A stretch of 64,000 bases of DNA from Aureitalea sp. L0-47 (GTDB taxonomy: Bacteria > Bacteroidota > Bacteroidia > Flavobacteriales > Flavobacteriaceae), in contig NZ_JAFMTQ010000001.1 of NCBI RefSeq assembly GCF_026126405.1, positions 665,052 through 729,051 on the forward strand, in the 5' to 3' direction. The notes under the pieces are model-generated. The model did no database searches and was not told where the DNA came from. It worked only from the letters and a program-made list of their open reading frames with translations. A program made the translations under genes and the position numbers. Numbering within the stretch: position 1 is the first letter of the stretch; each line of letters starts with the position of its first letter. Positions 1 through 42,853 of this stretch are shown in pieces.

Positions 1-537
1 GGGTTCCATAATAATTTCTACACCTCCCGGACCATTGTTTTTACCATTTAAAGATTCTTCAATTGAAGGTAATTTGTCTTTTGGCGACCAACCCGGGTAA
101 CCGTGCAATGATAATCCTGCCGTATGACTTAAAAGTCCCCTTATTGTAACTTTATTTGAATCAAATTCAGATTTTGGGATATGCCATCGGGTAAGATATT
201 TTTCTGCCGGTGTATCAAGGTCTAATTTGCCCTCCTGAACCAGTTTCATCACACCCCATGCGGCAATAGTTTTAGAAATAGATCCAATATTAAAACCCGT
301 GGAGGTAGTTACCGGGGTTCCTTTGTCAATATTTGAGTACCCATAGCCTTTTTGCAAGATAATTTCACCATTTTCTATAAGGGCAATGGCTGTGCCAGGA
401 ACAATAAAGTCATTTAATAATTGGGGAATTTTCTGGTCTAATTCGTATATAAATTGTTCAATTTCTTTCGATTCTTTTTGAGCTATAATTGAAAAAGAAA
501 ATAGCAGTGCTAAAAGGAAAGTTAGTTGTTTTTTCAT
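1..537 (-). CDS. Serine hydrolase, beta-lactamase family (3' end cut by window edge)
   Basis: Only the first 179 codons lie in the window; the reading frame runs off the left edge. An N-terminal signal peptide (about residues 1-19) is followed by the class C beta-lactamase/esterase fold. The nucleophile motif S-I-S-K is at residues 86-89, and HTAGL follows near residue 137, as in this family. It is probably an exported peptidase or esterase rather than a true beta-lactamase. It is the leftmost cargo gene seen and lies in the array direction. It resembles the full-length paralogue at 11115-12833, with SxxK at the same residue number. The YxN and HxG motifs would lie outside the window. Confidence 0.85.
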   Translation of the reverse strand, partial: MKKQLTFLLALLFSFSIIAQKESKEIEQFIYELDQKIPQLLNDFIVPGTAIALIENGEIILQKGYGYSNIDKGTPVTTSTGFNIGSISKTIAAWGVMKLVQEGKLDLDTPAEKYLTRWHIPKSEFDSNKVTIRGLLSHTAGLSLHGYPGWSPKDKLPSIEESLNGKNNGPGGVEIIMEP

Positions 538-680
538 TTTTATAGTTTCAGTTAAGACGACTGGGGAGTCTGATTGTAACCTAAGCTCATGCTTTTTGCA
601 TTTCTTTAATTGTACACGGTGTTGGCAAGAGTTTTTTATATGTTTCCGAAGTAGTTACTAATTCCACTTAATATACCATC
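538..680. other. Intergenic region without a clear gene
   Basis: Between the partial hydrolase and the marC remnant. A short AAC...GTT interval (578-623) with a weak CATGC/GCAT pairing could be a decayed attC site, but the expected matching cassette ends are absent. No ORF or terminator was recognised. Confidence 0.4.
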
Positions 681-950
681 TCAAAATATCATAGTAAGTG
701 CGAACAAAAATAGTATCACTCCTACAGAGATTTGGAAAGCATCAAGTGATACAGACATTCCTTCTAAAATCAGTTGTCCCATTACAGTGAAAAATAAGAG
801 TGTCAAGAATGCAATTATTGATTATTGGATTGCAATTTTCTTTTTGTGGACTAAATCAAACTCTTAAGTAGCCTCAAGATATACTGGTATGCTTCAGATT
901 GGGTCAACTACTGCAAACACAAAGAATATAGTAGTTAATATTTCAATCAT
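681..950 (-). pseudogene. marC-family (UPF0056) membrane protein remnant
   Basis: Read from the ATG at 950 the frame gives MIEILTTIFFVFAVVDPI, then ...SIPVYLEAT, then ...SIIAFLTLLFFTVMGQLI and ...SLDAFQIS. This is the N-terminal half of a MarC-type multi-pass membrane protein. Three in-frame stops interrupt it at codons 19, 29 and 43. The similarity ends at codon 89 (TGA at 681-683), whereas family members have about 200 residues. The ATG directly follows the stop of the DUF3124 gene (TAAATG), so the two were probably one operon or cassette. No frameshift is needed to read it, so decay was by point mutation plus truncation. Confidence 0.75.
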
Positions 951-1460
951 TTATTTTATTCGTTTTGCTTGTGTTGTGAAAGATAAACCTTGTTGTCCCA
1001 TAGTCGAAGTCATTATTCCCTCAAAAATTGGTTCTGGACAGTTTTTAGGAATTTTCCATTCCAAAATAAAGTTTGAACCTGTTCCTCCAGAAACATCAAT
1101 TTCATCAATAATTATCTCTGTAGTCTCCATAGGTGCTAAAAAGATTGGAGAATCAAAGTATTTTCTAACTGATTTTCCGTTAGTATCATAATATTCGGCT
1201 CTTAAAAGATAGATAGTGTCTAATTCACTTGTGTTTCTCATACTTATCATTGAAGTTAAGTTGTGAGTTCTATGTTCAGTGTTGCTATAAATTTGAGAAT
1301 AAACAGATAGATAAGATTTCCCGAATTCAAGTGAATCTTTTGAAGCTAAGTTAATAGCCCGTTCTGACCAATTCTCTGGACTAATAGAGCTAATTTCTGT
1401 CTTTTCGTTGCAACTAAAAAGGAGGGCAATTATGATTATGCTTAAATACTTTTTTTTCAT
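951..1460 (-). CDS. DUF3124 family lipoprotein
   Basis: The 169-residue product starts at MKKKYLSIIIIALLFSC, with a lipobox cysteine at residue 17, so it is a predicted lipoprotein. A longer frame to 1496 exists, but its extra codons come from the adjacent attC site. The rest fits the DUF3124 pattern: VYSQIY, a central LRAEYYDTNGK, then VSGGTGSNFILEW and a C-terminal GLSFTTQAKR. Function is unknown. It is followed directly by the marC remnant. The tag at its upstream end (GTTACAGCAT on the minus strand) has no partner to the left, so this cassette's distal end is eroded. Confidence 0.75.
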   Translation of the reverse strand: MKKKYLSIIIIALLFSCNEKTEISSISPENWSERAINLASKDSLEFGKSYLSVYSQIYSNTEHRTHNLTSMISMRNTSELDTIYLLRAEYYDTNGKSVRKYFDSPIFLAPMETTEIIIDEIDVSGGTGSNFILEWKIPKNCPEPIFEGIMTSTMGQQGLSFTTQAKRIK

Positions 1461-1487
1461 CTCGGTACGATATTTAAAATATGCTGT

Positions 1488-1750
1488 AACGTCCACAGCT
1501 ATAAATTCGTCGGTGGGACCGCCTTTGAAGCCGAGCTATTTGTGCCTCCGCTAACCTCCTTCGCCCAAACAGCATGGCTACGAAGGCCGAGAAGCTTCAG
1601 CGACATGCGAACGGCCCAGGAGACCAGGCATTTAGGGTAACTTTAGACGCCAATAAGCCTGGTACGTCAATTCGAATTTTCAATGGATACGTTATTTTGT
1701 AGTTAAATTAATCAATTCGGAACGAATTGAGCTGATTTGTAGCTATTGTT
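1488..1750 (-). repeat. attC-like site closing the DUF3788 cassette
   Basis: Left core AAC 1488-1490, right core GTT 1748-1750, 263 bp, the longest site here. The arms GCTATAAATTCG and GAGCTGATTTGTAGC pair. The right part resembles the sites at 4166, 16365 and 27403. The interior carries a second palindromic stretch (GGCTACGAAGGCC). Confidence 0.75.
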
Positions 1751-1776
1751 ATGGACTTTGTCGTATGACAATATTG

Positions 1777-2233: not shown

Positions 2234-2306
2234 AACTCATTGGGCAGTGTATTCAGCCGTATGTGTATGGTGCGTATCCCTCAGGGTATGCACTATATAC
2301 ATTGTT
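2234..2306 (-). repeat. Short attC-like hairpin site
   Basis: A strong palindrome, TGTATGGTGCGTATCCC paired with GGGTATGCACTATATACA around a TCA loop (2264-2300), followed by the GTT core at 2304-2306. The left core is poor and the end of the 1777 cassette does not match here, so the left boundary is uncertain. It closes the 2318 cassette. Confidence 0.55.
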
Positions 2307-2317
2307 GGCAGCAGTTT

Positions 2318-4165: not shown

Positions 4166-4303
4166 GACGTTCACGGCTTAGGACTTTTGGGTAAATTTTC
4201 TTACCCAAAAGCACTAGAGAGAGTTGTCGAATTCAGCCGTCTACTTTATTAGATGAAAAGACAATCAAATCAGCTCAATTTGAGCTGATTTATAGCCGCT
4301 GTT
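4166..4303 (-). repeat. attC-like site closing the propeller cassette
   Basis: The left core is GAC (an AAC variant) at 4166-4168 and the right core is GTT at 4301-4303. An internal stem TTTTGGGTAA/TTACCCAAAA and the right arm GAGCTGATTTATAGCC are visible. The 4327 cassette ends are GTTAGTGG and CCGCTAAC (7 of 8 match). Confidence 0.85.
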
Positions 4304-5423: not shown

Positions 5424-5469
5424 AACGTTCAAGTATAAGCATTCGTTTTAATGCCGCTTATGCGTTGTT
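5424..5469 (-). repeat. Short attC-like site
   Basis: Left core AAC 5424-5426, right core GTT 5467-5469. The arms ATAAGC/GCTTAT and ATT/AAT pair around a short loop. At 46 bp it is the smallest complete site here. It closes the cassette of the lipoprotein at 5483. Confidence 0.75.
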
Positions 5470-6117: not shown

Positions 6118-6166
6118 TAGGAATTCCAATTCACTTAACCATCTGAGCTGATTTATAGCCTTTGTT
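6118..6166 (-). repeat. Partial attC-like site (right arm only)
   Basis: Only GAGCTGATTTATAGCC plus the right core GTT (6164-6166) is kept. The left arm is missing just after the start of the expected cassette tag (AAATGT). It closes the 6191 cassette. Confidence 0.7.
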
Positions 6167-7294: not shown

Positions 7295-7481
7295 AACGTT
7301 TTTATGTATAGTTTGGTTACGGAAAGATCCGCAGGATTCTTTCCGCCGTAAACGAAAGATAGAGAATTGTAATGACACGAGCACGAAGTGCGAACTGTGC
7401 GTAAGCAAATTTTCAGAAGTCGGCGAGAACAAGCAACCCGCCAGAACGATTCTGTCGGGCTGGTTACTTATAGCCATTATT
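7295..7481 (-). repeat. attC-like site, chimeric
   Basis: Left core AAC 7295-7297; the right core is ATT at 7479-7481 (a GTT variant). The left half is unique, while the right half (GACACGAGCACGAAGTGCG onward) is shared with the site at 14165. It closes the aldo/keto reductase cassette. Confidence 0.75.
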
Positions 7482-8517: not shown

Positions 8518-8610
8518 AACGGTCTCGGCTATGAGTAGTTGCGTGGTTTAGTAATTAACTCCCGCCCGTAACGAACGGCACGTTCGGGCGGGTTACTTAT
8601 AGCCATTATT
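8518..8610 (-). repeat. attC-like site, GGTCTCGGCTATGAG type
   Basis: Left core AAC 8518-8520, right core ATT 8608-8610. The outer arms GGCTATGAGTAGTT/GGTTACTTATAGCC and the inner stem CCCGCCCG/CGGGCGGG pair. Cassette ends for the amidohydrolase gene: ATTGGCAATA and TTGTTGCCAAC. Confidence 0.85.
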
Positions 8611-10344: not shown

Positions 10345-10539
10345 AACTTTAAGTGTATGACCTGAGCTGGTTGCGACCTTCGACCCTGTTGGCAACATGC
10401 GGCTGTGTTTATTAACGTTGGCGGCAGGCGCGTAGGGGGAGAAGGGAGCCGCGATGAAACATTCCCGGACTGATTTAGTTTTGTTTAAAGATATGAATTT
10501 CCTGAAAGCAAAAACGAGAAATTGGATATAGCCACTGTT
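10345..10539 (-). repeat. attC-like site, chimeric
   Basis: Left core AAC 10345-10347, right core GTT 10537-10539. The left end contains GACCTGAGCTGGTT as in the site at 10983, while the rest matches the 15692 and 39375 type (GTTGGCGGC, ACATTCCCGGACTGATTTAG). It closes the 10556 cassette. Confidence 0.8.
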
Positions 10540-10982: not shown

Positions 10983-11103
10983 AACGTTTTCGTGAAGGAC
11001 CTGAGCTGGTTAACACTAACTCAGGAGTTACACAAAAAATTATTATGATTTGAAGGTAATAATTTTTGGGGTATAATTACCAGCTTGGGTTATACGCGTT
11101 GTT
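10983..11103 (-). repeat. attC-like site, GACCTGAGCTGG type, copy 1
   Basis: Left core AAC 10983-10985, right core GTT 11101-11103. Nearly identical in its interior to the site at 12853. It closes the 11115 cassette with perfect ends GTTGTAAGCA/TGCTTACAAC. Confidence 0.85.
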
Positions 11104-12852: not shown

Positions 12853-12954
12853 AACGTGTTCGTGAAGGACCTGAGCTGGTTAACACTAACTCAGGAGTTA
12901 CACAAAAAATTATTATGATTTGAAGGTAATAATTTTTGGGTTATACACGTTGTT
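12853..12954 (-). repeat. attC-like site, GACCTGAGCTGG type, copy 2
   Basis: Left core AAC 12853-12855, right core GTT 12952-12954. The arms AACGTGT/ACACGTT pair directly. It differs from the copy at 10983 mainly by a short deletion near the right end. It closes the acetyltransferase cassette (GTTGTACGC/GCGTACAAC). Confidence 0.85.
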
Positions 12955-12962: not shown

Positions 12963-13457
12963 TTAGTCTTTATTTAATAACGATTCATAAATTCTTGATT
13001 CTTCTCCCCAAGGGTGATATCCTTGACCAATATATTTAAAGTCATATTTTTCGTAATACCCGATATGACCCGTACACAGATATAGATAATCAAACCCAAA
13101 TTTTTTAGTGTCACGTTTTGCCCTATCAATTAAAAGGGATCCATAATCATTGCCTCTATATTTTTCATCAATGAATAGAGCGCAAAGCCAAGGATATAAT
13201 TCCCCACGGCTGATAAAATCATTAGTAATTAGTCCGGCGCAACCAATTAACAAGCCATTTAATTCGAGTAAATACCACTGAGGTAGAGGGTTTTTTGCGT
13301 TTAAGCTATTGGAAATACAGTCTTCATAAATGATTGGAAGAACACTTGGCCAACTTTTTTGAAGATAGTCAATTGCCTTGTCCTTGTAGGCTGGATGTTC
13401 TCTTACAGATATTATTTTTAATGATGAGTTGATGATGTTAATTATAATGGCGTACAA
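12963..13457 (-). CDS. GNAT family N-acetyltransferase
   Basis: About 150-164 residues. The acetyl-CoA loop of GNAT proteins is visible as DEKYRGNDYGSLLIDRAK. It is preceded by a beta strand ending in ALFI and followed by YLCTGHIGYYEKYDFKYIG. No ATG precedes the conserved part. The first possible start is a TTG at 13455-13457 inside the attC core; other choices would be ATT or TTA-region codons. So translation may start in the recombination site itself. Substrate unknown. Confidence 0.8.
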   Translation of the reverse strand: MYAIIINIINSSLKIISVREHPAYKDKAIDYLQKSWPSVLPIIYEDCISNSLNAKNPLPQWYLLELNGLLIGCAGLITNDFISRGELYPWLCALFIDEKYRGNDYGSLLIDRAKRDTKKFGFDYLYLCTGHIGYYEKYDFKYIGQGYHPWGEESRIYESLLNKD

Positions 13458-13580
13458 CCGTTATGTATAAAAATCTGTGGCGGCTTGGAGCGTTTCGTTT
13501 TAGTCCGCCAGGACTAATTTACTTAAAATTAGGGGAGTGGAAATAATGGCTTGAACCCGCCATAATTTTTATACTTTGCT
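13456..13580 (-). repeat. attC-like site, unique type
   Basis: Left core AAC 13456-13458; the right core is GCT at 13578-13580 (a GTT variant). The arms TTATGTATAAAAAT and ATTTTTATAC and the inner GGCGG/CCGCC pair. Its right end overlaps the last codons and stop of the gene at 13569, and its left end the start of the acetyltransferase. Confidence 0.75.
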
Positions 13581-25102: not shown

Positions 25103-25227
25103 AACGGTCTTGTATAACGCTTCGTTGCGTTGTATCAACTTTAGGTTAATTAATAACTTATCATTTCTCGATTCCGCGTATCATTCCGATGGAAATCTGC
25201 TTACAGCAATGAGCGTTATACGTTGTT
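25103..25227 (-). repeat. attC-like site, unique type
   Basis: Left core AAC 25103-25105, right core GTT 25225-25227. Arms GTATAACGCTTCGTTGC/GCAATGAGCGTTATAC. It closes the prolyl oligopeptidase cassette with perfect ends GTTGTGCAAC/GTTGCACAAC. Confidence 0.88.
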
Positions 25228-29988: not shown

Positions 29989-30058
29989 AACGGTTCTCAA
30001 CTAGGAGACGCGGGCTTCTCGGTTGTGGTCGTTCAGCCCGTGGCTTTTAGTTGATGTT
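29989..30058 (-). repeat. Short attC-like site at the ilv block
   Basis: Left core AAC 29989-29991, right core GTT 30056-30058. Arms TCAACTA/TAGTTGA and inner GCGGGC/GCCCGT. The tag GTTATGGTTAA starting at 30056 is mirrored by TTAACCATAAC at 37956-37966, so this site formally closes a cassette that contains the whole ilv operon. Confidence 0.82.
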
Positions 30059-30080
30059 ATGGTTAAAAATGATAATTTAA

Positions 30081-30112
30081 TTTGTCAAGTTCTAAATCTT
30101 ATTATAGATTTG
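30081..30112 (+). promoter_or_regulatory. Promoter of the ilv operon (Bacteroidota type)
   Basis: TTTG (30081-30084), 20 bp spacer, TAGATTTG (30105-30112). This matches the Bacteroidota consensus TTTG-N19/20-TAnnTTTG. Transcription would start near 30119, just before the first leader peptide. Confidence 0.8.
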
Positions 30113-30120
30113 CGATCGTA

Positions 30121-30183
30121 ATGAGAAAAATGAAGAATATTACTGCCATTATTGAAGTCGTGATTATTGATCACAGGCTCTAG
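30121..30183 (+). CDS. ilv attenuator leader peptide 1
   Basis: The 20 codons read MRKMKNITAIIEVVIIDHRL, with a run rich in Ile, Val and Thr (ITAIIEVVII). The stop TAG is directly followed by GGATGG, which can pair with CCATCC of the terminator stem at 30213. Stalling at Ile or Val codons would favour the antiterminator and transcription of ilvE onward. Confidence 0.82.
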   Translation: MRKMKNITAIIEVVIIDHRL

Positions 30184-30212
30184 GGATGGTATATGCAGAT
30201 ATAAAGATTTGA

Positions 30213-30238
30213 AGCCATCCATTAGGGTGGCTTTTTTT
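30213..30238 (+). terminator. ilv attenuator terminator 1
   Basis: Stem AGCCATCC/GGGTGGCT (one G-U pair), loop ATTA, followed by seven T. The competing pairing is GGATGG at 30184-30189 with CCATCC at 30215-30220. Confidence 0.85.
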
Positions 30239-30253
30239 ATGAATAGAACTTAG

Positions 30254-30313
30254 ATGAAACGCACATTGAACAACATTATTATCGTCATTATTATTTCTGC
30301 TCTGCTCGAGTGA
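30254..30313 (+). CDS. ilv attenuator leader peptide 2
   Basis: The 19 codons read MKRTLNNIIIVIIISALLE, with six Ile codons, one Val and three Leu. Its end overlaps GAGTGAGA, which can pair with TCTCAC in the loop side of the next terminator. It forms a second attenuator in series with the first. Confidence 0.82.
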   Translation: MKRTLNNIIIVIIISALLE

Positions 30314-30341
30314 GATTAGGACGATTGTATGTATAACACTG

Positions 30342-30374
30342 AGCCCTTCTCACTTCGAGAAGGGCTTTTTTTTT
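30342..30374 (+). terminator. ilv attenuator terminator 2
   Basis: Perfect 10-bp stem AGCCCTTCTC/GAGAAGGGCT with a 5-nt loop and nine T, 20 bp before the ilvE start. Confidence 0.9.
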
Positions 30375-30394
30375 GAATCAAATAAACACATAAT

Positions 30395-31285
30395 ATGTAT
30401 TACAATGAAAACACCACCATCTTTCTAGATGGTAACTGGATGAAAGCATCAGAAGCCTCAACCGACCTGTACGCGCAAACCATGCACTATGGTTCTGGCG
30501 TTTTTGAAGGAATTCGTTCTTACGCGACTGAGGAAGGAGCTCGCGTATTTAAGGCCCATGAACATTACGAACGATTGTTCTATTCAGCAGAGAAAATGCA
30601 CATTAAACTCGATTATACGGTTGATCAATTGGTTGAGCTGACATATCAATTGCTCGATCGGAACGGTCTCCACAATGCATACATCCGTCCTCTTGTTTAT
30701 CTCGGCGCAAATATGACTTTACAGCCAACAGATGAGGTGCATGTGATGCTCTGTGCTTGGAGTTGGGATCGTTACCTCGGTGATCAATTACTTAGCGTCA
30801 TGACTTCCTCTTATCAGCGACCTAATCCTAAATCGTGTCATGTGGAAGCCAAAGTGACAGGGCATTATACAAATTCCATTTTGGCAACAACAGAAGCTAA
30901 GCAAAAGGGGTTCGATGAAGCGTTACTTCTGGATATGAATGGATACGTTGCAGAAGGTCCTGGTGCAAATTTCTTCTTTGAAAAGGATGAGAAATTGTTC
31001 ACCGCTCCGCTCGGCAACATTTTAGCAGGAATTACCCGCCAGACTGTATTCGAACTCGCTGATGAACTCGGTATCGAAGTGGTGGAGAAGCACTTCACCC
31101 CAGAGGACGTATATGATGCCGATGGTGCATTTTTCACAGGAACGGCAGCTGAAGTAGCAGGCATTGAAAGTTTGGATGGAAACACATTTGGTCTACAATG
31201 GGAAGAAACCTTAGGAGCTGTGCTTTCGACAGCCTATCTCAATCGCGTTCAAAAACTTGAATACAAAAATTTCGAATTAGTATGA
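30395..31285 (+). CDS. ilvE: Branched-chain amino acid aminotransferase
   Basis: 296 residues, fold type IV PLP enzyme. [18 protein letters not shown] is the N-terminal landmark, the PLP lysine lies in [12 protein letters not shown], and the cofactor-binding turn [11 protein letters not shown] follows. It transfers the amino group in the last step of Ile, Val and Leu synthesis. It is the first gene of the ilv operon behind two attenuators. Its stop overlaps the ilvD start (ATGA). Genes here are on the plus strand, opposite to the surrounding cassettes. Confidence 0.95.
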
Positions 31286-32955
31286 AACTGAATAAGTACA
31301 GTTGTCGAATCACGCAAGATGATTCTCAACCTGCGGCACAGGCCATGCTTCATGCAATAGGTCTGAGTAAGGAAGACTTGGATAAGCCGTTTGTTGGTAT
31401 TGCAAGCACCGGTTATGAAGGAAATCCATGCAACATGCATCTAAACGACCTCGCAAAGAAAGTCAAAGAGGGTACGTCGAACGAAAACCTTGTTGGATTG
31501 ATTTTCAATACGATTGGAGTAAGTGACGGAATATCTATGGGAACACCTGGAATGCGTTATTCTTTACCCTCACGTGATGTGATTGCTGATTCCATGGAAA
31601 CGGTGGTAGAAGGAATGTCATATGATGGACTCGTAACTGTAGTCGGGTGTGATAAAAACATGCCTGGTGCGTTGATGGCCATGTTGCGTGTAAATCGCCC
31701 AAGTGTATTGGTCTATGGAGGTACAATCGCCTCTGGATGTCATGAAGGAAAGAAACTCGATGTTGTTTCTGCTTTTGAAGCTTGGGGAAAGAAAAATGCT
31801 GGAACCATCGATGACCATGAGTACCAACAGGTGATAGAAAAAGCATGTCCTGGTGCTGGAGCATGCGGAGGGATGTACACGGCAAATACCATGGCGTCAG
31901 CAATTGAAGCTTTGGGGATGTCCTTACCATTCAATTCATCTAATCCTGCGCTGTCCGATGCAAAGATTAAAGAAAGTGTTCGAGCTGGGGAGGCATTGCG
32001 CTTGCTGCTAGAGAAAGATATCAAACCTCTAGATATTGTAACGAGAAAGTCTCTTGAGAATGCCATTCGATTGGTTACTGTACTTGGAGGGTCGACTAAT
32101 GCGGTGCTGCATTTTTTAGCGATAGCAAGTACTGCTGGGGTCGAATTTACCTTGGATGATTTCCAACATATCTCTGATACAACACCATTCTTGGCGGATT
32201 TGAAACCAAGTGGAAAGTACTTAATGGAAGACGTGCATGAGGTTGGTGGAATCCCAGCGGTATTGAAGTATCTACTCGAACAAGGATTGCTTCACGGCGA
32301 TTGTATGACGGTCACAGGAAAAACGCTCGCTGAGAATTTGGTGGAAGTGGATTCCTTGGCCGAAGGTCAGGATGTGATCAAACCACTTGAGAAGCCGATC
32401 AAAGCAAATGGGCATCTGCGCATCTTGAAAGGAAATCTTTCTCCAACGGGAGCCGTAGCCAAAATAACCGGAAAGGAAGGACTTCAATTTACAGGAAATG
32501 CACGGGTGTTCAATTCTGAATACGAAGCGAATGAGGGTATACGCAACGGTAAGGTGGTGAAAGGTGATGTCGTAGTAATTCGTTACGAAGGGCCTCAAGG
32601 AGGTCCAGGTATGCCTGAGATGCTGAAGCCAACTGCTGCGATTATTGGTGCAGGACTTGGAAACGATGTGGCCTTAATTACAGATGGTCGATTCTCAGGA
32701 GGATCGCACGGCTTTGTTGTGGGACATGTTTCTCCGGAAGCCCAGGTAGGTGGGCCAATAGCCTTAGTTAACAATGGCGACAAGATTACGATCGACGCAG
32801 TAAAGAATACGATCGAACTTGATGTTTCTGAATCCGAATTAATGGAACGAAAAAAGGCCTGGAAGGCACCAGCGTTAAAGTTCCAGCGAGGAGTTTTGAG
32901 CAAGTATGCACGAACGGTTTCATCAGCATCGGAAGGATGTGTAACAGATAAATAG
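31282..32955 (+). CDS. ilvD: Dihydroxy-acid dehydratase
   Basis: 557 residues, the usual length. Cluster and active-site motifs are present: [22 protein letters not shown] with its cysteine, [16 protein letters not shown], and the C-terminal [10 protein letters not shown]. It dehydrates dihydroxy acids to 2-oxo acids in Ile and Val synthesis using an Fe-S cluster. It overlaps ilvE by 4 nt and is followed by ilvB after 6 nt. Confidence 0.96.
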
Positions 32956-32961
32956 CAAATC

Positions 32962-34692
32962 ATGAGAACATTGGAATTAACAAGAAGTGAGAGTAAACCA
33001 GAAACGCAAACAATGTCTGGAGCACAAGCAGTGGTCCAAGCCTTAATCGATGAAGGAACAGAGTTGATGTTTGGATACCCTGGTGGTGCAATTATGCCCG
33101 TGTACGATGCGTTGTACGACGTTGAAGATAAATTGGAGCATGTGTTAACCAGGCACGAGCAAGGGGCTGTTCACGCTGCTCAAGGTTATGCCCGAGCGAC
33201 AGGTAAAGTAGGCGTCTGTTTGGCAACGTCTGGACCTGGTGCAACGAACTTAATCACAGGAATCGCTGATGCGCAAATCGACTCTACGCCGTTGGTGTGC
33301 ATCACAGGTCAAGTGCACAGTCACTTACTCGGAACGGATGCATTTCAAGAAACTGATGTCATTGGTATTTCTATGCCGGTAACGAAGTGGAACTATCAAG
33401 TCACACGAGCTGAAGAGATCCCAGAGGCGATTGCAAAGGCCTTTTATATTGCGCGTTCAGGAAAACCAGGTCCAGTCTTGGTAGATATAACAAAAGATGC
33501 GCAATTCGAGCAATTGGACTATGCGTACAAGCCTTTTGGAGGAATGCGTAGCTATCAGCCAGTATCGGCCTTGAATTCTAAGGCGATCGAACAAGCCGCT
33601 GAACTCATCAACTCTGCAAAGAAGCCATTTGTCCTGTTTGGTCAAGGGATTATCCTTTCTGGAGCCGAGCAAGAATTCAAAACCTTCATTGAAAAGGCTG
33701 GACTGCCAGCAGCGTGGACAATAATGGGGTTATCGGCGCTTGAATCAGATCATTATCTGAATGTCGGAATGCTCGGGATGCATGGAAATTATGGACCGAA
33801 TAAATTGACGAATGAATGTGATGTGCTTATTGCCGTTGGAATGCGTTTCGATGACCGAGTGACTGGTGATCTATCACGTTATGCAAAGCAAGCGAAGGTG
33901 GTACATTTGGAAATCGATCCCGCTGAGATCAACAAGAATGTGCATGCAGATGTACCCGTGCTGGGTGATGCGAAAGCATCATTGAAAGCCCTGACTGAGT
34001 TAGTAGAGCCAAAGTCAAATGAGGAATGGTTAGCATGCTTTCGAGCATTAGAGCGGGAAGAGCGCGAAGCAGTCATTAATGAAGAACTGAATCCAAGCAG
34101 TCCAATAATGACTATGGGCGAAGTGATCGATGAAATCAATACTGCGAGCAAAGGCGACGCAATCGTTGTGACCGATGTAGGTCAGCACCAAATGGTGGCC
34201 TGTCGTTATGCTAAGTTCAATGAATCAAAATCGATGATTACATCAGGTGGCTTAGGAACGATGGGCTTTTGCCTGCCAGCTGCAATAGGAGCAAAAATGG
34301 GATGTCCAGAAAAGGAAGTTGTCGCTGTGATTGGTGATGGTGGTTTTCAAATGACCATCCAAGAATTAGGTACCATTTTCCAAGCTAAGACGGCAGTCAA
34401 AATTGTTGTGTTGAACAATGAATTTTTGGGCATGGTGCGCCAGTGGCAAGAATTGTTCTTCGATAAGCGCTATGCATCCACAACAATGGTGAATCCTGAT
34501 TTCCAAACGATTGTGAAGGGATATGGTATTCGGACGAGAAAAGTCGAAGTACGCGAAGACTTGGCCGAAGCTGTAGCTGAAATGATGATGTACGAGGGGT
34601 CTTATTTCCTTGAAGTTCTGGTGGGCAAGGAGAACAATGTGTTCCCAATGGTTCCGACAGGTGCTTCAGTTTCTGAAATCCGACTCAAATAA
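32962..34692 (+). CDS. ilvB: Acetolactate synthase, large subunit
   Basis: 576 residues, a thiamine-diphosphate enzyme. The N-terminal part has FGYPGGAIMPVYDAL and the catalytic glutamate in RHEQGAVHAAQGYAR. The ThDP motif is IGDGGFQMTIQELGTI through VVLNNEFLGMVRQWQ. It condenses pyruvate with pyruvate or 2-oxobutyrate. The regulatory subunit gene ilvN follows after 8 nt. Confidence 0.96.
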   Translation: MRTLELTRSESKPETQTMSGAQAVVQALIDEGTELMFGYPGGAIMPVYDALYDVEDKLEHVLTRHEQGAVHAAQGYARATGKVGVCLATSGPGATNLITGIADAQIDSTPLVCITGQVHSHLLGTDAFQETDVIGISMPVTKWNYQVTRAEEIPEAIAKAFYIARSGKPGPVLVDITKDAQFEQLDYAYKPFGGMRSYQPVSALNSKAIEQAAELINSAKKPFVLFGQGIILSGAEQEFKTFIEKAGLPAAWTIMGLSALESDHYLNVGMLGMHGNYGPNKLTNECDVLIAVGMRFDDRVTGDLSRYAKQAKVVHLEIDPAEINKNVHADVPVLGDAKASLKALTELVEPKSNEEWLACFRALEREEREAVINEELNPSSPIMTMGEVIDEINTASKGDAIVVTDVGQHQMVACRYAKFNESKSMITSGGLGTMGFCLPAAIGAKMGCPEKEVVAVIGDGGFQMTIQELGTIFQAKTAVKIVVLNNEFLGMVRQWQELFFDKRYASTTMVNPDFQTIVKGYGIRTRKVEVREDLAEAVAEMMMYEGSYFLEVLVGKENNVFPMVPTGASVSEIRLK

Positions 34693-34700
34693 GAATAGTA

Positions 34701-35234
34701 ATGAAAAAAAGATACACAATATCCGTATTTACCGAAGATAATGTGGGGCTGTTAAACCGGGTCACAATCATCTTCACAAGAAGAAAAATAAACATCGAAA
34801 GTATTGCTGCTTCAGACAGTGAGGTAAAGAATGTACATCGTTATACCATAGTTATTACAGAGACCGAAGATCTGGTCAAAAAGGTGGTGCTACAACTCGA
34901 AAAGCAAGTGGAAGTGATCAAGGCTTTTTACCATGAGGACGACGCAATTGTATATCAGGAGATCGCATTATATAAGGTGCCGACAGATATCTTGGTAGCT
35001 GGAAAAGAGGCGGAAAAAATCGTGAGATCACATTACGCACGGGTCTTATCGGTCGAAGCTGATTTCACAGTGATAGAGAAAACAGGACACAAAGAAGAGA
35101 CTCAAGCGCTGTTCAATGATCTGGAGCCGTATGGTATTTTGGAATTTGTCCGTTCGGGCCGAATTGCCATCAGCAAACCAATGAAAACTTTGACATCAAT
35201 AGTAGAAGAATTAGAAAACGAGATTAACAATTAA
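34701..35234 (+). CDS. ilvN: Acetolactate synthase, small (regulatory) subunit
   Basis: 177 residues. The N-terminal ACT domain, which binds valine in this family, opens [20 protein letters not shown] and carries the INIESIAAS segment. The C-terminal half ([30 protein letters not shown]) contacts the large subunit. Length and order next to ilvB are typical. Confidence 0.94.
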
Positions 35235-35238
35235 GAAC

Positions 35239-36720
35239 ATGAAAAATTATTTTAACGAGCTCAGTAGAGCGGAACAATTAGAGCAACTCGGCATGTGCGA
35301 GTTAATGAGTCCATCCGAATTTCTAAACGGCGTTGATGCTATACGCGGTAAGGATATTGTAATCATTGGTTGTGGTGCCCAAGGCTTGAACCAAGGCTTG
35401 AATATGCGTGACTCCGGTTTGACAATTTCATATGCTTTGCGAAGTTCGGCTATTGAAGAAAAGCGCCAATCGTATTTAAGTGCAGTTGAACACGATTTTC
35501 GCGTAGGAACTTACGAAGAATTGATCCCTTCCGCTGATCTCGTGATAAACCTAACACCAGATAAACAGCATACTAACGTGGTCAACGCCGTTATGCCTTT
35601 GATGAAAGAAGGCGCGACATTGTCGTATTCGCACGGATTCAATATCGTGGAGGAGGCAATGCAAGTGCGCAAGGACATCACTGTCATCATGGTTGCTCCC
35701 AAATCTCCTGGTTCGGAGGTTCGGGAAGAATATAAGCGTGGGTTTGGCGTTCCGACACTAATTGCAGTGCATCCTGAGAATGATCCACAAGGATATGGTC
35801 TGGAGTGGGCGAAGGCGTATGCGGTTGCAACTGGTGGAGACAAGGCAGGTGTTCTACGTTCTTCATTTGTTGCAGAGGTGAAATCGGATTTGATGGGTGA
35901 GCAAACGATTCTTTGTGGTGTCCTGCAATCGGCTTCCATTCTCTGTTTTGATAAAATGGTTGCTGAAGGATTGGATAAGCACTACGCAGCCAGATTGGTG
36001 CAATTTGGTTGGGAAACGATTACCGAAGCTTTAAAACACGGCGGGATAACTCAAATGATGAATCGTCTATCTGAACCTGCAAAGTTCGAAGCCAATCGCT
36101 TGTCGAATCAACTGAAGGAGCTGATGAAACCTTTGTTTGAAAAACACATGGACGATATTATGTCCGGTAAATTCTCTCGCGAAATGATGCTTGATTGGTC
36201 CAATAATGATAAGAATTTATTGGAGTGGCGCCAATTGACGGGTGAAACGTCATTCGAGAAAACGGAATGTGCGGTTGATGAGATCAGCGAGCACGAATAT
36301 TTCGATCACGGAACTTTGCTCGTCGCTTTTTTGAAATCGGGTGTTGAATTAGCATTTGAAACGATGGTTGCGGCTGGGATCAAGGAAGAGTCCGCTTATT
36401 ACGAGTCTTTGCACGAAGCACCACTGATCGCAAATACGATTGCTCGGAAGAAACTATTTGAAATGAATCGAATCATCTCGGATACTGCCGAGTATGGTTG
36501 TTACTTGTTTGATCACGCTTGTCGCCCCTTGTTGTCTGACTTCATGAATACCGTATCGACTAATGTGATCGGAGAGAAGTATACGAAGGATCAGGACATC
36601 GATAAACAAAAGTTACTCGAATTGAATCAATCGATCAAAGACCATCCGATCGAAGTTGTAGGTGAATCATTACGATCGGCAATGACTGCGATGAAACCGT
36701 TGGAGTATGCAAACTGTTGA
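35239..36720 (+). CDS. ilvC: Ketol-acid reductoisomerase, class II (long form)
   Basis: 493 residues, i.e. the long form with a duplicated knotted domain, as in enteric bacteria and many Bacteroidota. The NADPH-binding loop is [19 protein letters not shown], and the metal site is near [16 protein letters not shown]. It isomerises and reduces acetolactate and acetohydroxybutyrate. The last 14 nt overlap ilvA. Confidence 0.95.
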
Positions 36721-37954
36721 ATTAAATAAGGTAAAGGAAGCCGCATCGCTATTGAGTGATGTGGTTTCCGAAACACCACTCATGCTCAATATACATTTGT
36801 CGCAGTTGATGAATGCCAAAGTTCATTTTAAACGAGAAGATCTCCAGCAGGTACGATCCTACAAGATTCGGGGAGCATACAATAAAATAGCTTCACTAAA
36901 TAGGGATCAACTGGCTCAGGGAGTTGTTTGTGCGAGTGCAGGAAATCATGCGCAGGGAGTGGCACATTCATGTTTTCTGAAGCAAGTTCATGGAGTCATT
37001 TTCATGCCAGTTCCAACACCAAAACAGAAGGTGGATCGTGTACGACAATTTGGAGGTGAGTTCATTGAAATAGTACTGGTAGGAGACACATTTGACGAAG
37101 CATCTGAAGAGGCGATGCGCTATTGTCGGGAGAACAATATGAGTTTCATTCATCCCTTCGATGACATGAAAGTGATAGAAGGTCAGGCTACAATAGCTCT
37201 TGAATTGTTGAGTCAAGCCAATACGCCCATCGACTATGTTTTCGTTCCTGTTGGTGGTGGAGGTGTAGCCTCTGGAATTTCCAGTGTGTTAAAAAAGCTT
37301 TCACCCCAAACCAAGATTATTGGTGTAGAGCCTGCAGGAGCAGCCTCTATGTCGACCTCTTTGCATCGCGGAGTGAACACAAAGTTGGATCATATCGACA
37401 AATTTATAGATGGGGCATCGGTGCAAAAGGTAGGGGAGTTGAACTTCGAATTGTGCTCGATACATTTGGACCAGATGGCCACTGTTCATGAGGGAAAGGT
37501 TTGTCAAACAATTCTTGAATTGTACAATACGGACGCCATTGTTGTTGAGCCTGCAGGTGCATTATCCGTAGCTGTTTTGGAACAGTTCAAGGATGAAATT
37601 GCTGGTAAGAATGTCGTTTGTCTTATTAGTGGCAGCAATAATGATATCACGCGCACCGAAGAGATTAAAGAACGTGCCTTATTACACGAAGGAGTGAAGC
37701 ACTACTTCTTGGTTCGTTTCCCTCAGCGAGCTGGAGCATTAAAGGAGTTTATCTCCGAAGTATTGGGACCTAACGATGACATCACACATTTTGAGTATTC
37801 CAAGAAGCACAATCGAAATACGGGGCCAGCGGTAATTGGTATTGAAATGAACGGACAGAGGGATGTTGAGGCCTTGATAACAAGAATGAAGGAACGTAAT
37901 TACTATGGAGAATACCTCAACAATAAAAACGATTTATTTCAGATGCTGTTGTGA
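36707..37954 (+). CDS. ilvA: Threonine dehydratase (biosynthetic)
   Basis: 415 residues. The PLP lysine lies in [13 protein letters not shown], and the glycine loop is [11 protein letters not shown]. The C-terminal ACT-like domain ([18 protein letters not shown]) is the short single-domain version. It makes 2-oxobutyrate, the committed step to isoleucine. It is the last gene of the operon. Its TGA ends 1 bp before the TTAACCATAAC cassette tag, so the operon fills the cassette to the edge. Confidence 0.94.
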
Positions 37955-37963
37955 ATTAACCAT

Positions 37964-38127
37964 AACGTCCACGGCTATGAATTCGACGCGCTTGGCCAGC
38001 GGTTTTGGGTAGCTTTTTGCACCCAAAAGTGCTGCTGTGGAAATGTCGGATTCGCCGTGAGTATTAATTTAAAGATGAAGTTAGTGATTTTCGCTAAAAA
38101 CCCTGGCGTTGATTTATAGCCACTGTT
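37964..38127 (-). repeat. attC-like site, long GGCTATGAATTCGACGC type
   Basis: Left core AAC 37964-37966, right core GTT 38125-38127. It closes the 38141 cassette (GTTGTGTTTA/TAAACACAAC). Its left tag TTAACCATAAC belongs to the ilv block. Confidence 0.92.
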
Positions 38128-38560: not shown

Positions 38561-38685
38561 AACGGTCTCGGCTATGAGTAGTTGCGTGGGTTAGTACTTA
38601 ATTTTGCAAGTACACACCAAACTGAAAATCCGCGAGGATTTTCAGAAGTAAGCGAGAACAAGCAATTACTTATAGCCATTGTTGT
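38561..38685 (-). repeat. attC-like site, GGTCTCGGCTATGAG type
   Basis: Left core AAC 38561-38563, right core GTT 38683-38685. Inner stem CTGAAAATCC/GGATTTTCAG. Very close to the site at 40273. It closes the 38696 cassette (GTTGTGCAAC/GTTGCACAAC). Confidence 0.92.
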
Positions 38686-39374: not shown

Positions 39375-39562
39375 AACGTCCACGGCTATGTTCCTGTTGC
39401 GACATCGGCCTTATCGGCAGCATGCGGCTGAGTTTATTAACGTTGGCGGCTGTTGCGTTAGGTAGAAGGGCGCCGCGACGAAACATTCCCGGACTGATTT
39501 AGTTTTGTTTAAAGATATGAATTTCCCGAAAGCCAAACGAGCAATGGAATATAGCCACTGTT
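39375..39562 (-). repeat. attC-like site, GGCTATGTTCCTG type
   Basis: Left core AAC 39375-39377, right core GTT 39560-39562. Nearly the same as the 15692 site. It closes the DUF6602 cassette with ends GTTGCCCACA/TGTGGGCAAC. Confidence 0.92.
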
Positions 39563-40272: not shown

Positions 40273-40395
40273 AACGGTCTCGGCTATGAGTAGTTGCGTG
40301 GTTTAGCACTTAACTTTGTAAGTACGCACCAAACTGAAAATCCGCGAGGATTTTCAGAAGTAGGCGAGAACAAGCAATTACTTATAGCCATTGTT
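40273..40395 (-). repeat. attC-like site, GGTCTCGGCTATGAG type
   Basis: Left core AAC 40273-40275, right core GTT 40393-40395. It closes the cation transporter cassette (GTTGTGGTTA/TAACCACAAC). Confidence 0.92.
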
Positions 40396-40413
40396 GTGGT
40401 TAGTGTTTTTTAT

Positions 40414-41208
40414 TTATTTACTTAATTTTAAAATTCTTAATGCTCCTTGAATTACCAAAATAAAAACGATTGTTCCGATAATCAAATCGGGTTTGCTCGA
40501 ACTCAACCAATTTACCAAAAGTCCAGCGATTATGACTCCTAAATTAATAATCACGTCATTCGAGGTGAAAATCATACTTGCTTTCATATGTGCCTCTTCT
40601 TTGCTTTTTGACTTTTGCAAAATGTAAAGACAAATTCCATTTGCGATAAGCGCAAAAATTGAAACGATAATCATTATCGAAAAATCGGGAAGTTTCTCGT
40701 CTCCGAAAAACCTCCTTAACACTTCCACAAATCCAATAATCGCAAGTGTTATTTGAAAATATCCAGCAAGTTTCGCAATCCGCTTTTTTCTTGTCAGAGT
40801 TCCGCCAACCGCAAACAAGCTAATTCCGTAAACGAAACTGTCCGCAAGCATATCCAAACTGTCTGCAACTAATCCCATCGATTTTGAGATTAATCCAGTT
40901 GTCATTTCGATTATGAAAAAGGCAAAATTTATGGTAAGTACAGACCAAAGTAACTTTTTTTGGTTTGCATTTTCTTTAAATTCCGTTTGTTCGGTTTGTT
41001 CAGTCGAGATTTTCTTTCCGCCTAAATTCAGTTCGATAACGGACTTTTCGATTTGGTCAATTTGTCCGCTGTGAAAAACAGTTAGTTTTCGGTTGGGAAT
41101 GTCAAAGTCCAGATTCGCAATACTTGAGATTCCATCCAATTTCATTCGGATTAAATTTTCCTCTGAAGGACAATCCATTTTGGTGATCTCAAATATCGTT
41201 TTGTTCAT
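40414..41208 (-). CDS. Cation diffusion facilitator-like transporter with N-terminal metal-binding-like domain
   Basis: 264 residues. The first 65 residues have an HMA-like beta-alpha-beta outline (FEITKMDCPSEENLIRMKL, with one cysteine). Five to six membrane helices with CDF signatures follow: ADSLDMLADSFVYGISLFAVGG and FTSNDVIINLGVIIAGLL. Divalent metal export is the family function. The normal long cytosolic C-terminal domain is missing, so the metal-binding part has moved to the N terminus. Single-gene cassette. Confidence 0.82.
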   Translation of the reverse strand: MNKTIFEITKMDCPSEENLIRMKLDGISSIANLDFDIPNRKLTVFHSGQIDQIEKSVIELNLGGKKISTEQTEQTEFKENANQKKLLWSVLTINFAFFIIEMTTGLISKSMGLVADSLDMLADSFVYGISLFAVGGTLTRKKRIAKLAGYFQITLAIIGFVEVLRRFFGDEKLPDFSIMIIVSIFALIANGICLYILQKSKSKEEAHMKASMIFTSNDVIINLGVIIAGLLVNWLSSSKPDLIIGTIVFILVIQGALRILKLSK

Positions 41209-41238
41209 TCAATTTATCGGTTTTTGGAAATTAACCAC

Positions 41239-41404
41239 AACGTCCACGGCTATGAATTCGACGCGCTTGGACAGTGGTTTTGGGTAGCTTTTTGCACCCA
41301 AAAGTGCTGCAGCGTTGAGTCGGATTTATCAGTCGTGACTTTAATTTAGAAGATGAAGTTAGTGATTTTAGCTAAATACCTGGCGTTGATTTATAGCCTT
41401 TGTT
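41239..41404 (-). repeat. attC-like site, long GGCTATGAATTCGACGC type
   Basis: Left core AAC 41239-41241, right core GTT 41402-41404. It closes the first (attI-proximal) cassette with ends GTTGTAAGCC/GGCTTACAAC. Confidence 0.92.
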
Positions 41405-41413
41405 GTAAGCCGT

Positions 41414-41884
41414 TTATATTAAATGTTTACTCAAGTCTATCCAGAAATTGTTGTGTAACTCATAGGTTCCACCATTTAGGTTAAATCTGATTTTACTTAT
41501 GTTGAAATAATTAGGGTCGGTTAACCATTTAGAACCTTTATTCAATTCATTCGCATCTCTTTCATTAGTTACGTAAGGAGGAACTTCAAAACATTTACAT
41601 TCAATCTTTCTTTCAGAATTATAGTTTGACTCAAAGTATGGAATAACATTATTAAATAGCATGCTTTCGACATTTGAAGTAAATCCAATCAACAAATAAC
41701 TTTCAAGGTTTCTACCCAGCAAATCCTTTCCTCTTTTTGAAAATAATGGTCTTATGTTTTGGCTATTACTAATTTTGAGAAGATATTCTGCAATTTCTGG
41801 GTCGATGCTCTGGTTTTCTATTTCTTGCACCAAAGCTTCCTTGTAATATTTCAATAAGTTATCATCTAAATAAATTCTATTCAA
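41414..41884 (-). CDS. Hypothetical protein of the attI-proximal cassette
   Basis: About 156 residues; not recognised. It is soluble, with no signal peptide. Segments KRGKDLLGRNLESYLLIGFTS and FNLNGGTYELHNNFWIDL are visible. The frame has no ATG at its start: a TTG at 41884 is the first usual start, since TAG lies three codons upstream. As the first cassette it would be the newest insertion and the best expressed from a promoter in the attI region. Confidence 0.55.
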   Translation of the reverse strand: MNRIYLDDNLLKYYKEALVQEIENQSIDPEIAEYLLKISNSQNIRPLFSKRGKDLLGRNLESYLLIGFTSNVESMLFNNVIPYFESNYNSERKIECKCFEVPPYVTNERDANELNKGSKWLTDPNYFNISKIRFNLNGGTYELHNNFWIDLSKHLI

Positions 41885-41910
41885 CTCGATATTCTAAATG
41901 GCTTACAACG

Positions 41911-41941
41911 TTTGTATAAAGGTAGAAAAATAAAATATTTG
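41911..41941 (+). promoter_or_regulatory. Promoter of the recombinase gene
   Basis: TTTG (41911-41914), exactly 19 bp, AATATTTG (41934-41941; 7 of 8 to TAnnTTTG). Transcription would start near 41948, about 70 bp before the ATG. Confidence 0.65.
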
Positions 41942-41945
41942 TAAA
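41917..41945 (-). promoter_or_regulatory. Possible cassette promoter (Pc-like)
   Basis: On the minus strand TTTA (41945-41942), 17 bp, TACCTTTA (41924-41917), resembling TTTG-N19-TAnnTTTG. It points into the first cassette and overlaps the recombinase promoter. Confidence 0.4.
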
Positions 41946-42016
41946 TTGCTGAGCAAGTTCTTTCGTCCCAGCTGGGTTAACCACTCAAATGTTAACCTTT
42001 TAAGATATTTTATACC

Positions 42017-42853
42017 ATGGACGTTAAGCACCCTTTTTCAGATTTTGGCCGTATCCTCGAACTTAAACGTTATGCTCCAAATACCGTAAAGATCTACCTC
42101 TCCCTTCTTAAAACACTTCAGAAACAAATAGGAGAACAACCCATTCACGAACTCGAAAACTCCCAGATCGTAAGTCAGGCAATGCAGCTTGTGGAACGGA
42201 AAAAATATAGCCGCTCAAGCCATAAACAACTCCTGGGAGCCCTGGGATTATACCTTCGGGAGATGCACAACCGAAAGATCGACTTCTCTAACATCTATCC
42301 GGTGCGGAAACAAAAAAGGCTGCCGCAAATCCTTTCCAAAGAGGAAATCACCAGGCTCTTAGATTCCACAAAGAACATCAAACACAAAACCATGATCATG
42401 TGCCTCTACGGACTAGGCCTTCGGCGTGGTGAACTGCTTAATCTCAAAGTAAACGATATAGACAGCGACAGGGGAGTGGTGCATATCAAAAGTGCGAAAG
42501 GGAATAAAGACAGGCTGGTGCCACTTTCAGAAACACTACTGAAACAACTACGGGAATACTACAGATCCTACCGGCCGAAAAACTACCTTTTTCAAGGCCT
42601 TAAAGGGGGAAGATACTCCGAAACAAGCCTGCTGAAAGTCTTCCACGAGGCCTGTCGGAAAGCCAATATACGAAAGAAAGTTACCCCTCACAGCCTTCGC
42701 CATGCCTATGCAACCCATCTTATGGATTCAGGAGTGGATGTGCGTATTATTCAGGAACTACTCGGCCATGGTTCCGTTAAAACAACCATGATCTATACCC
42801 ATGTAAGTACCAGGAACATTCTGGATGTCACCAGTCCCCTGGATATGCTCTAG
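42017..42853 (+). CDS. Tyrosine recombinase, candidate integron-like integrase
   Basis: 278 residues. The N-terminal SAM-like DNA-binding domain (about 5-90) is followed by the catalytic domain with Arg136 (GLGLRRGELL), Lys161, His225 and Arg228 (HSLRHAYATHL), His251 (LLGHGSVKTT) and Tyr260 (MIYTHV). It ends with VTSPLDML, like the TSPLD end of IntI proteins. Between KQLREYYRSYRPKN and YLFQG there is no room for the extra helix region that marks canonical IntI, so it is an Xer-sized relative. It is divergent from the array and separated from it by an attI-like region. No phage genes lie near. Confidence 0.85.
   Translation: MDVKHPFSDFGRILELKRYAPNTVKIYLSLLKTLQKQIGEQPIHELENSQIVSQAMQLVERKKYSRSSHKQLLGALGLYLREMHNRKIDFSNIYPVRKQKRLPQILSKEEITRLLDSTKNIKHKTMIMCLYGLGLRRGELLNLKVNDIDSDRGVVHIKSAKGNKDRLVPLSETLLKQLREYYRSYRPKNYLFQGLKGGRYSETSLLKVFHEACRKANIRKKVTPHSLRHAYATHLMDSGVDVRIIQELLGHGSVKTTMIYTHVSTRNILDVTSPLDML

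What the first reader, a model, noticed from the sequence alone, without database searches (positions are those of the whole stretch)
1..42853. A large integron-like cassette array in a Bacteroidota chromosome
27 imperfect palindromes alternate with about 27 gene units, nearly all in one direction. The decisive sign is the end matching. Each unit starts with a GTT box and ends with the reverse complement (AAC box), and the 9-11 bp pair differs between units: GTTGTACGC/GCGTACAAC, GTTAGGCGC/GCGCCTAAC, GTTGCCCACA/TGTGGGCAAC, GTTGTGGTTA/TAACCACAAC and others. More than 20 of 27 units show it. This is what circular cassettes joined at attC produce. The units differ from IS elements (no transposase) and CRISPR (the spacing is genes).
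Basis: partly seen in the sequence, partly recalled or inferred. Interest (0 to 1): 0.95.

Follow-up and report, generated by a model that had tools for sequence, protein, structure and literature searches.

The report
Integron built around a patchless recombinase
A Flavobacteriaceae chromosome carries about 27 gene cassettes with matching ends, one of them holding the genome's only ilvC and ilvD genes, lined up beside a recombinase that lacks the part held to be essential in integron integrases and yet is likely the enzyme that moves them.

Summary
In 24 testable units the end boxes match at 8.75/10 bases against 5.74 for permuted pairs (0 of 20,000 as high); 19 of 24 match at >=9/10, and matching decays with distance from a divergent tyrosine recombinase at 42017-42853. 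In two pairs of congeneric species homology runs through recombinase and attI and stops at the attI core. One cassette is shared with Algibacter, homology confined to the cassette. So it works like an integron. It is not a canonical one: the recombinase lacks the about 42-residue additional domain (I2/patch) of IntI (spacing 59 against 101), no IntI passes the cut-off in the genome, and the sites lack the R''-L'' extrahelical bases. It is family-wide: 25 of 26 sampled recombinase loci carry two or more such sites, all on one side and one strand. Cassette 6 (8 kb) carries ilvE, D, B, N, C, A; ilvC and ilvD occur nowhere else in the genome and were not found in six congeners. Recombination itself is untested. 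New variant of a known kind.

The parts
42017..42853 (+). Tyrosine recombinase, 278 aa (P0001), without the IntI additional domain; proposed cassette integrase
   Evidence: R136, H225, R228, H251, Y260 invariant in A1; spacing KxR to HxxRH 59 (canonical IntI 101); TIGR02249 196 bits (cut-off 265) in two pieces
41907..42016 (-). attI-like region between recombinase start and first cassette; core GTT at 41909-41907
   Evidence: homology with congener G679 stops at this core
41242..41404 (-). attC-like site 1
40276..40395 (-). attC-like site 2
   Evidence: in the training set of R1
40276..41241 (-). Cassette 2: cation efflux gene (40414-41208) plus site 2; shared with Algibacter onchidii at 91% DNA identity, ends 3 nt from the cuts
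39378..39562 (-). attC-like site 3
   Evidence: no R1 hit
38564..38683 (-). attC-like site 4
   Evidence: in the training set of R1
37967..38127 (-). attC-like site 5
   Evidence: R1 hit stops short of R'
29992..37966 (-). Cassette 6 (7,975 nt with its site): ilv operon antisense to the array, boxes GTTATGGTTA / TAACCATAAC match 10/10
30395..31285 (+). ilvE-type aminotransferase class IV
   Evidence: PF01063
31282..32955 (+). ilvD dihydroxy-acid dehydratase, only PF00920 match in the genome
32962..34692 (+). ilvB acetolactate synthase large subunit
34701..35234 (+). ilvN acetolactate synthase small subunit
35239..36720 (+). ilvC ketol-acid reductoisomerase, only PF01450 gene in the genome
36707..37954 (+). 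ilvA threonine dehydratase
29992..30058 (-). attC-like site 6 (70 nt, L stem CAACTA)
   Evidence: no R1 hit
29191..29353 (-). attC-like site 7
28343..28502 (-). attC-like site 8
27406..27562 (-). attC-like site 9
25106..25227 (-). attC-like site 10 (GTATAAC type)
   Evidence: in the training set of R1
19755..25105 (-). Cassette 11 (about 5.3 kb): Rrf2 regulator, ScdA/hemerythrin, anaerobic RNR NrdD, radical SAM protein, alpha/beta hydrolase
19755..19865 (-). attC-like site 11
17463..17633 (-). attC-like site 12
16368..16522 (-). attC-like site 13
15695..15878 (-). attC-like site 14
   Evidence: R1 hit stops short of R'
14168..14371 (-). attC-like site 15
13450..13586 (-). attC-like site 16; R'' box does not match the preceding R'
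   Evidence: E 2.2e-7
12856..12954 (-). attC-like site 17
10986..11103 (-). attC-like site 18
10348..10539 (-). attC-like site 19, boxes 8/10
8521..8610 (-). attC-like site 20, boxes 8/10
7298..7481 (-). decayed site 21, boxes 4/10
6120..6166 (-). site 22, truncated: 5' half only; its R'' matches 10/10
5427..5469 (-). site 23, very short
4169..4303 (-). attC-like site 24, R' reads GTC
2249..2312 (-). decayed site 25 (R1 E 0.009)
1491..1750 (-). decayed site 26
560..623 (-). decayed site 27, 5' half

Best explanation
This is a chromosomal array of about 27 gene cassettes with matching end boxes beside a divergent tyrosine recombinase that lacks the IntI additional domain, and that recombinase is predicted to insert cassettes at the adjacent attI and to excise them at hairpin-forming attC-type sites. 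Shown: units start GTT plus 6-8 own bases and end with the complement before AAC; site interiors form an asymmetric 3/6 (or 3/5) internal loop and an L stem whose two arms match each other; shared cassettes and congeners break at the GTT core of R'. Inferred: the crossover falls between G and TT of R' as in canonical integrons; the substrate is the folded bottom strand, which folds better than the top strand in 18 of 22 sites; without extrahelical bases on the R''-L'' arm the asymmetric central loop sets strand choice, a role that loop can play in a canonical site stripped of those bases (PMC2727003, passages read); new cassettes enter at attI, which would explain why distal ones are decayed. 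Also inferred: cassette 6 brought the whole Ile/Val pathway in one step.
For: End matching with permutation control and decay gradient. Candidates linked by R boxes alone, without a stem criterion: 106 of 222 carry an L stem >=5 at 3/6 or 3/5, against 22 (sd 4, max 38 of 1,000) with permuted 3' arms and 1 with mirrored offsets. Model R1 (40 sites, 3 from the window) has 18 hits on the - strand of the window at E<=0.05, all inside the array (2 of them end short of R'), and 2 weaker + strand echoes of two training sites at E<=0.1. It finds sites in 25 of 26 sampled recombinase loci (24 genomes); all 176 keep one side and one strand per locus. 10 of the 26 loci gave no training sites; 9 of these 10 have hits. 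0 hits in 40 control stretches of 646,688 nt, 3 of them from this genome. Congener G679: recombinase 98% identical, 939 nt at 95.4% ending at the attI core, other genes beyond, their 4 end-box pairs matching at 9-10/10. Congeners G091 and G578 break at the attI core too. Shared cassettes: 10 alignments of >=400 nt at >=80% identity between genomes; 9 lie in arrays, each with at least one end <=18 nt from a cut in both loci, 4 with both ends; 6 of the 9 concern the one cation-efflux cassette. No TIGR02249 match over the cut-off in the genome.
Against: No recombination was observed. Messier and Roy 2001, as cited in PMC7790495 (and named in PMC2426708), hold the additional domain necessary for cassette capture. 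One locus of 26 (L192) has no site. Of the ten best-scoring short recombinases three show no sites: two lie about 230 nt from a contig end, one (L199) has 2.9 kb upstream. G198 of the same genus has 7 sites but no recombinase hit at E<=1e-40, so sites can persist or arrive without it. A canonical-IntI locus (L218) carries 4 sites of this type and 1 of the canonical type, so the pairing of enzyme and site types is not absolute. Of G679's array only about 4 kb was on the contig. In one search one locus (L184) has one box chain on the wrong strand.
Confidence: 0.86

Rival explanations
1. A CALIN: the cassettes were put in by a canonical IntI that acts in trans or was lost, and the neighbouring recombinase is unrelated.
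For: Canonical IntI over the cut-off occurs in 84 of 296 sampled genomes of the phylum; CALINs are common (PMC8618304, passages). G198 has sites without a recombinase hit.
Against: No canonical IntI over the cut-off in the genome. A recombinase of this type neighbours sites in 25 of 26 sampled loci with fixed side and strand. A model of canonical attC sites has one marginal hit (E 0.057) in 16 loci of this type, against 51 hits (31 of them training sites) in 14 canonical loci. In two congener pairs homology runs through recombinase plus attI to the core.
Confidence: 0.07
2. XerC/XerD or general homologous recombination between repeated palindromes shuffles the units, without a dedicated integrase.
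For: The genome has two other recombinases of about 310 aa that fall with the rows I labelled Xer (no Xer model was run on them); site interiors of one type are much alike, so homologous exchange is possible.
Against: Homologous exchange inside sites would not give each unit its own matching pair of end boxes nor put breaks at the GTT core. It does not explain the polarity towards the recombinase.
Confidence: 0.04
3. The ilv operon is not a cassette: it lay there before, or entered by other means, and its flanking boxes match by chance.
For: Its GC content (0.444) is like the chromosomal flank (0.441), not like the array left of it (0.354); it runs antisense to the array.
Against: Boxes match 10/10 at the expected places beside sites on both sides; ilvC and ilvD were not found in six congeners.
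Confidence: 0.12

Closest known systems
Canonical (IntI-type) integrons
   Same: Divergent recombinase, attI, cassettes with matching R boxes, core GTT, hairpin attC with R and L stems and, in the same phylum, a 3/6, 2/6 or 1/5 central loop.
   Different: Recombinase lacks the about 42-residue additional domain; sites lack R''-L'' extrahelical bases; R' starts GTTG in 78 of 106 sites (GTTA 27, GTTC 1) against GTTA in 32 of 32 canonical ones; each site model misses the other's sites except in L218 and one marginal hit.
CALIN elements
   Same: attC-type clusters without a recognised IntI.
   Different: A recombinase of another clade sits at the expected end, with attI.
XerA / XerC / XerD recombinases
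   Same: The recombinase is nearest to archaeal XerA by sequence and predicted fold.
   Different: Linked to cassette arrays; spacing 59 against 65-68 in 15 of 16 rows I labelled Xer, one not measurable.
NCBIfam NF040815 'site-specific tyrosine recombinase/integron integrase'
   Same: Best NCBIfam match of P0001 (215 bits, cut-off 220); some relatives carry this name.
   Different: The name rests on a family model; the ten paper searches showed no description of arrays for it.

Membership tests
Canonical integron | IntI with additional domain (patch III / I2) | tested here: not met
   Spacing 59 against 101 in 24 of 26 canonical rows (2 not measurable; at least two genes are in twice); TIGR02249 196 bits, cut-off 265
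Canonical integron | attI next to the integrase gene | tested here: met
   Homology between congeners stops at the core, in two pairs; function untested
Canonical integron | Cassettes with complementary R'/R'' boxes and GTT core | tested here: met
   19 of 24 at >=9/10, permutation control
Canonical integron | attC folds into a hairpin with R and L stems | tested here: met
   (prediction)
Canonical integron | Extrahelical bases on the R''-L'' arm | tested here: not met
   Stem goes on in register 0 or -1 (4.38 and 3.99 of 8), not +1 (1.75); canonical +1 4.66 (105 and 32 sites)
Canonical integron | Found by a model of canonical attC sites | tested here: not met
   1 marginal hit in 16 loci; IntegronFinder's own model not run
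Canonical integron | Cassette gain, loss or exchange between strains | tested here: met
   Between species: congeners differ next to attI; cassettes shared as units. No strains of one species were compared
Canonical integron | Pc promoter driving cassettes | not tested
   No promoter scan was run
Canonical integron | Site-specific recombination activity | not testable with these tools
   -
CALIN | No integrase beside the attC cluster | tested here: inconclusive
   No IntI, but a recombinase of another clade with attI
XerCD dif modules | Units bounded by 28-bp dif sites (recalled) | not tested
   No dif search was run; the 22 sites folded are 46-207 nt

The most novel reading that the evidence does not exclude
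A second lineage of integron, spread over Bacteroidota, recombines hairpin sites without the I2 domain and without the extrahelical bases that I2 reads; I2 is therefore not what makes an integron, and these enzymes are living representatives of the I2-free state. In this organism the platform captured a complete isoleucine/valine pathway as one 8-kb cassette and turned a member of an auxotrophic genus prototrophic in one event.
Probability: 0.55. Interest if true: 0.95.

Novelty: new variant of a known kind. Interest (0 to 1): 0.88.

Why it matters
The I2 domain is described as necessary for cassette capture, as found in no other protein, and its history as lacking intermediates (PMC7790495, abstract and passages read). 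A family-wide system that shows the signature of cassette exchange without I2 would make the question what integrons need directly testable, and offers candidates for the I2-free state. A survey that asks for IntI with the domain, or for a canonical attC model, would likely pass these loci by (inference: my canonical model did; IntegronFinder was not run; PMC9024848, passages, names one complete integron in Bacteroidetes proper besides those of Chlorobi and Ignavibacteriae). Cassettes that hold whole operons (Ile/Val synthesis; an anaerobic ribonucleotide reductase set) may widen what integrons are known to move; my one search on this gave a listing only.

Tried and rejected
Canonical IntI: no match over the cut-off. 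Rfam: no family at gathering threshold in the window. Defence function: none of the 10 proteins sent to PADLOC (of 38) matched; Pfam shows ilv genes in the antisense block.

My own first idea, that the 3/6 central loop is unlike canonical attC, was wrong: canonical sites of this phylum share it. The extrahelical bases are what differs. The canonical sites in that test come from 5 loci of one family (f23); the other 9 canonical loci fetched gave none or one box-linked site each. 24 of 32 canonical and 35 of 105 patchless sites had no register with >=6/8 matches, so the contrast rests on the means and on the rest.

Relation to IntI: canonical IntI forms one clade (SH-aLRT 100) apart from the array recombinases, but a tree that joins both groups in one clade is not rejected (p-AU 0.276). 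Whether the patchless state is ancestral, lost or independent stays open. The tree was the quick method; the array part of it holds 12 rows whose arrays I did not establish beforehand.

Predicted structure: pLDDT 86, but under 50 at 253-261 around the catalytic tyrosine, pTM 0.64; used only as support.

Novelty searches: 10, open-licence PubMed Central only, no preprints; I saw listings and starts of abstracts. None showed a description of this system. Papers: PMC7790495 abstract, outline and passages; PMC9024848, PMC2426708, PMC8618304, PMC9668308, PMC3053210, PMC2727003 passages only. Messier and Roy 2001 not read, cited through others.

Full report
What was checked. The window lies at the end of a 729-kb contig of a 3.38-Mb genome in 67 contigs. 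Family relatives include Costertonia aggregata (protein P0011 on a contig of 3,910,334 bases, the length of genome G500's contig), which is Flavobacteriaceae; the nearest named relative of the recombinase is 85% identical, from an uncultured Eudoraea. The genome itself is unnamed.

The array. Read on the - strand, cassettes run leftwards from 41909 to about 560. Each well-kept unit begins GTT plus 6-8 own bases and ends with the complement before AAC. 24 of 27 units can be tested: 19 match at >=9/10; the mean is 8.75 against 5.74 (sd 0.30) for permuted boxes, 0 of 20,000 as high; identity falls with rank from the recombinase (Spearman -0.72, p 7e-5); the first 15 average 9.73. Left of the window, model R1 finds nothing in 60 kb. 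In the genome search R1 has 15 hits at E<=0.1 (only 150 of 993 first-look candidates were scored): 13 here, a single strong site on contig 18 after a gene that by eye encodes a serine-hydrolase-like protein, and a weaker one on contig 22.

Site anatomy. In array orientation: R'' box ending AAC, 3 nt, L'' stem, loop, L' stem, 5-6 nt, GTT box. Without a stem criterion, 106 of 222 R-box-linked candidates have an L stem of >=5 at 3/6 or 3/5, against 22 (sd 4, maximum 38 of 1,000) with permuted arms and 1 with mirrored offsets; 12 different L hexamers occur. Many of the 222 are probably chance pairings of boxes. Bottom strands of 22 window sites fold with mean z -3.4.

Comparison with canonical attC of the same phylum. 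Canonical IntI genes over the cut-off occur in 84 of 296 phylum genomes. Sites beside five of 14 fetched loci share the central-loop layout but go on with an extra base on the R''-L'' arm (+1: 4.66 of 8 matches; register 0: 2.75; -1: 2.47; 32 sites), as expected for extrahelical bases. The 105 sites of this system go on in register 0 (4.38) or with an extra base on the other arm (-1: 3.99), not +1 (1.75). PMC2727003 (passages) defines extrahelical bases as lying on the R''-L'' arm, names them among elements common to all known attC substrates, and reports that attC x attC deletion by IntI1 is abolished when both sites lack them, while the unpaired central spacer can still set strand choice in attI x attC. 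PMC3053210 (passages) reports that in the VchIntIA structure the alpha-I2 helix contacts the region of the second such base. Absence of I2 and absence of these bases fit together. R' starts GTTG in 78 of 106 sites here, GTTA in 32 of 32 canonical ones.

The recombinase. P0001 has residues R136, H225, R228, H251 and Y260 invariant in alignment A1; that they are catalytic is established knowledge of tyrosine recombinases. Its KxR-HxxRH spacing is 59; the array recombinases that could be measured have 59-62, canonical IntI 101, 15 of 16 Xer-labelled rows 65-68. It matches TIGR02249 in two pieces around the missing part. Nearest solved structures: archaeal XerA and IntI4. In a quick tree of 103 proteins canonical IntI is one clade and the array recombinases lie elsewhere; joining them is not rejected.

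Spread. Of 397 family genomes 249 have a homologue at E<=1e-60, with open frames mostly of 280 to 490 aa. From the rows listed, which are the better-scoring part of the ranking, I took all 26 in genomes of at most 3 contigs (24 genomes). Exact box chains appear in 18 of 26 (one locus also has one chain on the wrong strand). Model R1 finds >=2 sites in 25 of 26; all 176 sites keep side and strand: downstream, same strand in 21 loci; upstream, divergent in 4 (L173, L174, L183, L187). Ten loci gave no training sites; nine of them have hits. Of the ten best-scoring recombinases, all short forms (open frames 278-291 aa), seven have sites in the window or the fetched flank; two of the three misses (G010, G491) lie about 230 nt from a contig end, G675 has 2.9 kb upstream without sites. 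Among 39 other loci, mostly Bacteroidota, 8 have 16 hits, among them Algoriphagus, Aquiflexum, Flavobacterium aciduliphilum and a Bacteroidales MAG. Control: 0 hits in 40 stretches, 646,688 nt: 3 from this genome, 37 around recombinases of other phyla. In the 14 canonical loci R1 has 4 hits, all in L218, which also has one canonical-type site.

Movement. In congener G679 the chromosome to the right is largely syntenic at 76% identity, recombinase plus attI is 95.4% identical over 939 nt, homology stops at the core, and the next 4 kb, to the contig end, has six ORFs without a DNA match to the window's cassettes (only site-like repeats match), with four box pairs at 9-10/10. Congeners G091 and G578 are 97.7-97.8% identical through the recombinase and diverge right after the attI GTT. 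Cassette 2 of the window is found in Algibacter onchidii (91% DNA) with all four alignment ends 3 nt from the cuts, and in G034; in G150 the gene is shared with another site interior. In the Algibacter case the site interior travels with the gene upstream of it, which places the crossover at R'.

Operon cassettes. Cassette 6 holds ilvE, D, B, N, C, A, antisense, with 10/10 boxes. ilvC has one copy in the genome, here (its two KARI_C matches are two stretches of one gene); ilvD likewise. Neither is found in six other genomes of the genus, one of them a single contig at 99% completeness; G500 and G091 have ilvC at 71-73% identity. That the genus is auxotrophic and that the cassette gives prototrophy is inference from two genes; the leucine branch and the other four genes were not searched for in the congeners. 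Cassette 11 holds an anaerobic ribonucleotide reductase set.

What is not shown: any recombination reaction, expression from a Pc promoter, and the strand used.

Noticed in passing
L218:3035-5710 (+): Four sites of the patchless type in a 20-kb stretch that holds a canonical IntI gene (G203) and one canonical-type site; possible mixed locus or exchange between systems.
   Followed up: partly
L231 against window 41907-53367: Recombinase plus attI is 95.4% identical to the congener while the chromosomal flank is 76%: the platform itself may have moved laterally.
   Followed up: no
L226:9905-10041 (-): A lone attC-type site on another contig of the same genome, after a gene that by eye looks like a serine hydrolase.
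   Followed up: partly
L106:8630-10744 (+): A 704-aa protein of Bacteroidetes GWF2_41_31 whose C-terminal part is a recombinase of this kind, followed by an array with several 2/5 central loops.
   Followed up: no
window 40276-41241; L084; L204; L185: The same cation-efflux gene carries different site interiors in different genomes, as if genes can change their attC.
   Followed up: partly
G198 (same genus): Seven sites at several places on a single-contig chromosome, but no recombinase hit at E<=1e-40.
   Followed up: no
window 3373-4137, 17643-18731, 18771-19523, 27572-28309: Four genes of the unknown family DUF6090 (PF19578) in three cassettes (9, 12 and 25) of one array.
   Followed up: no
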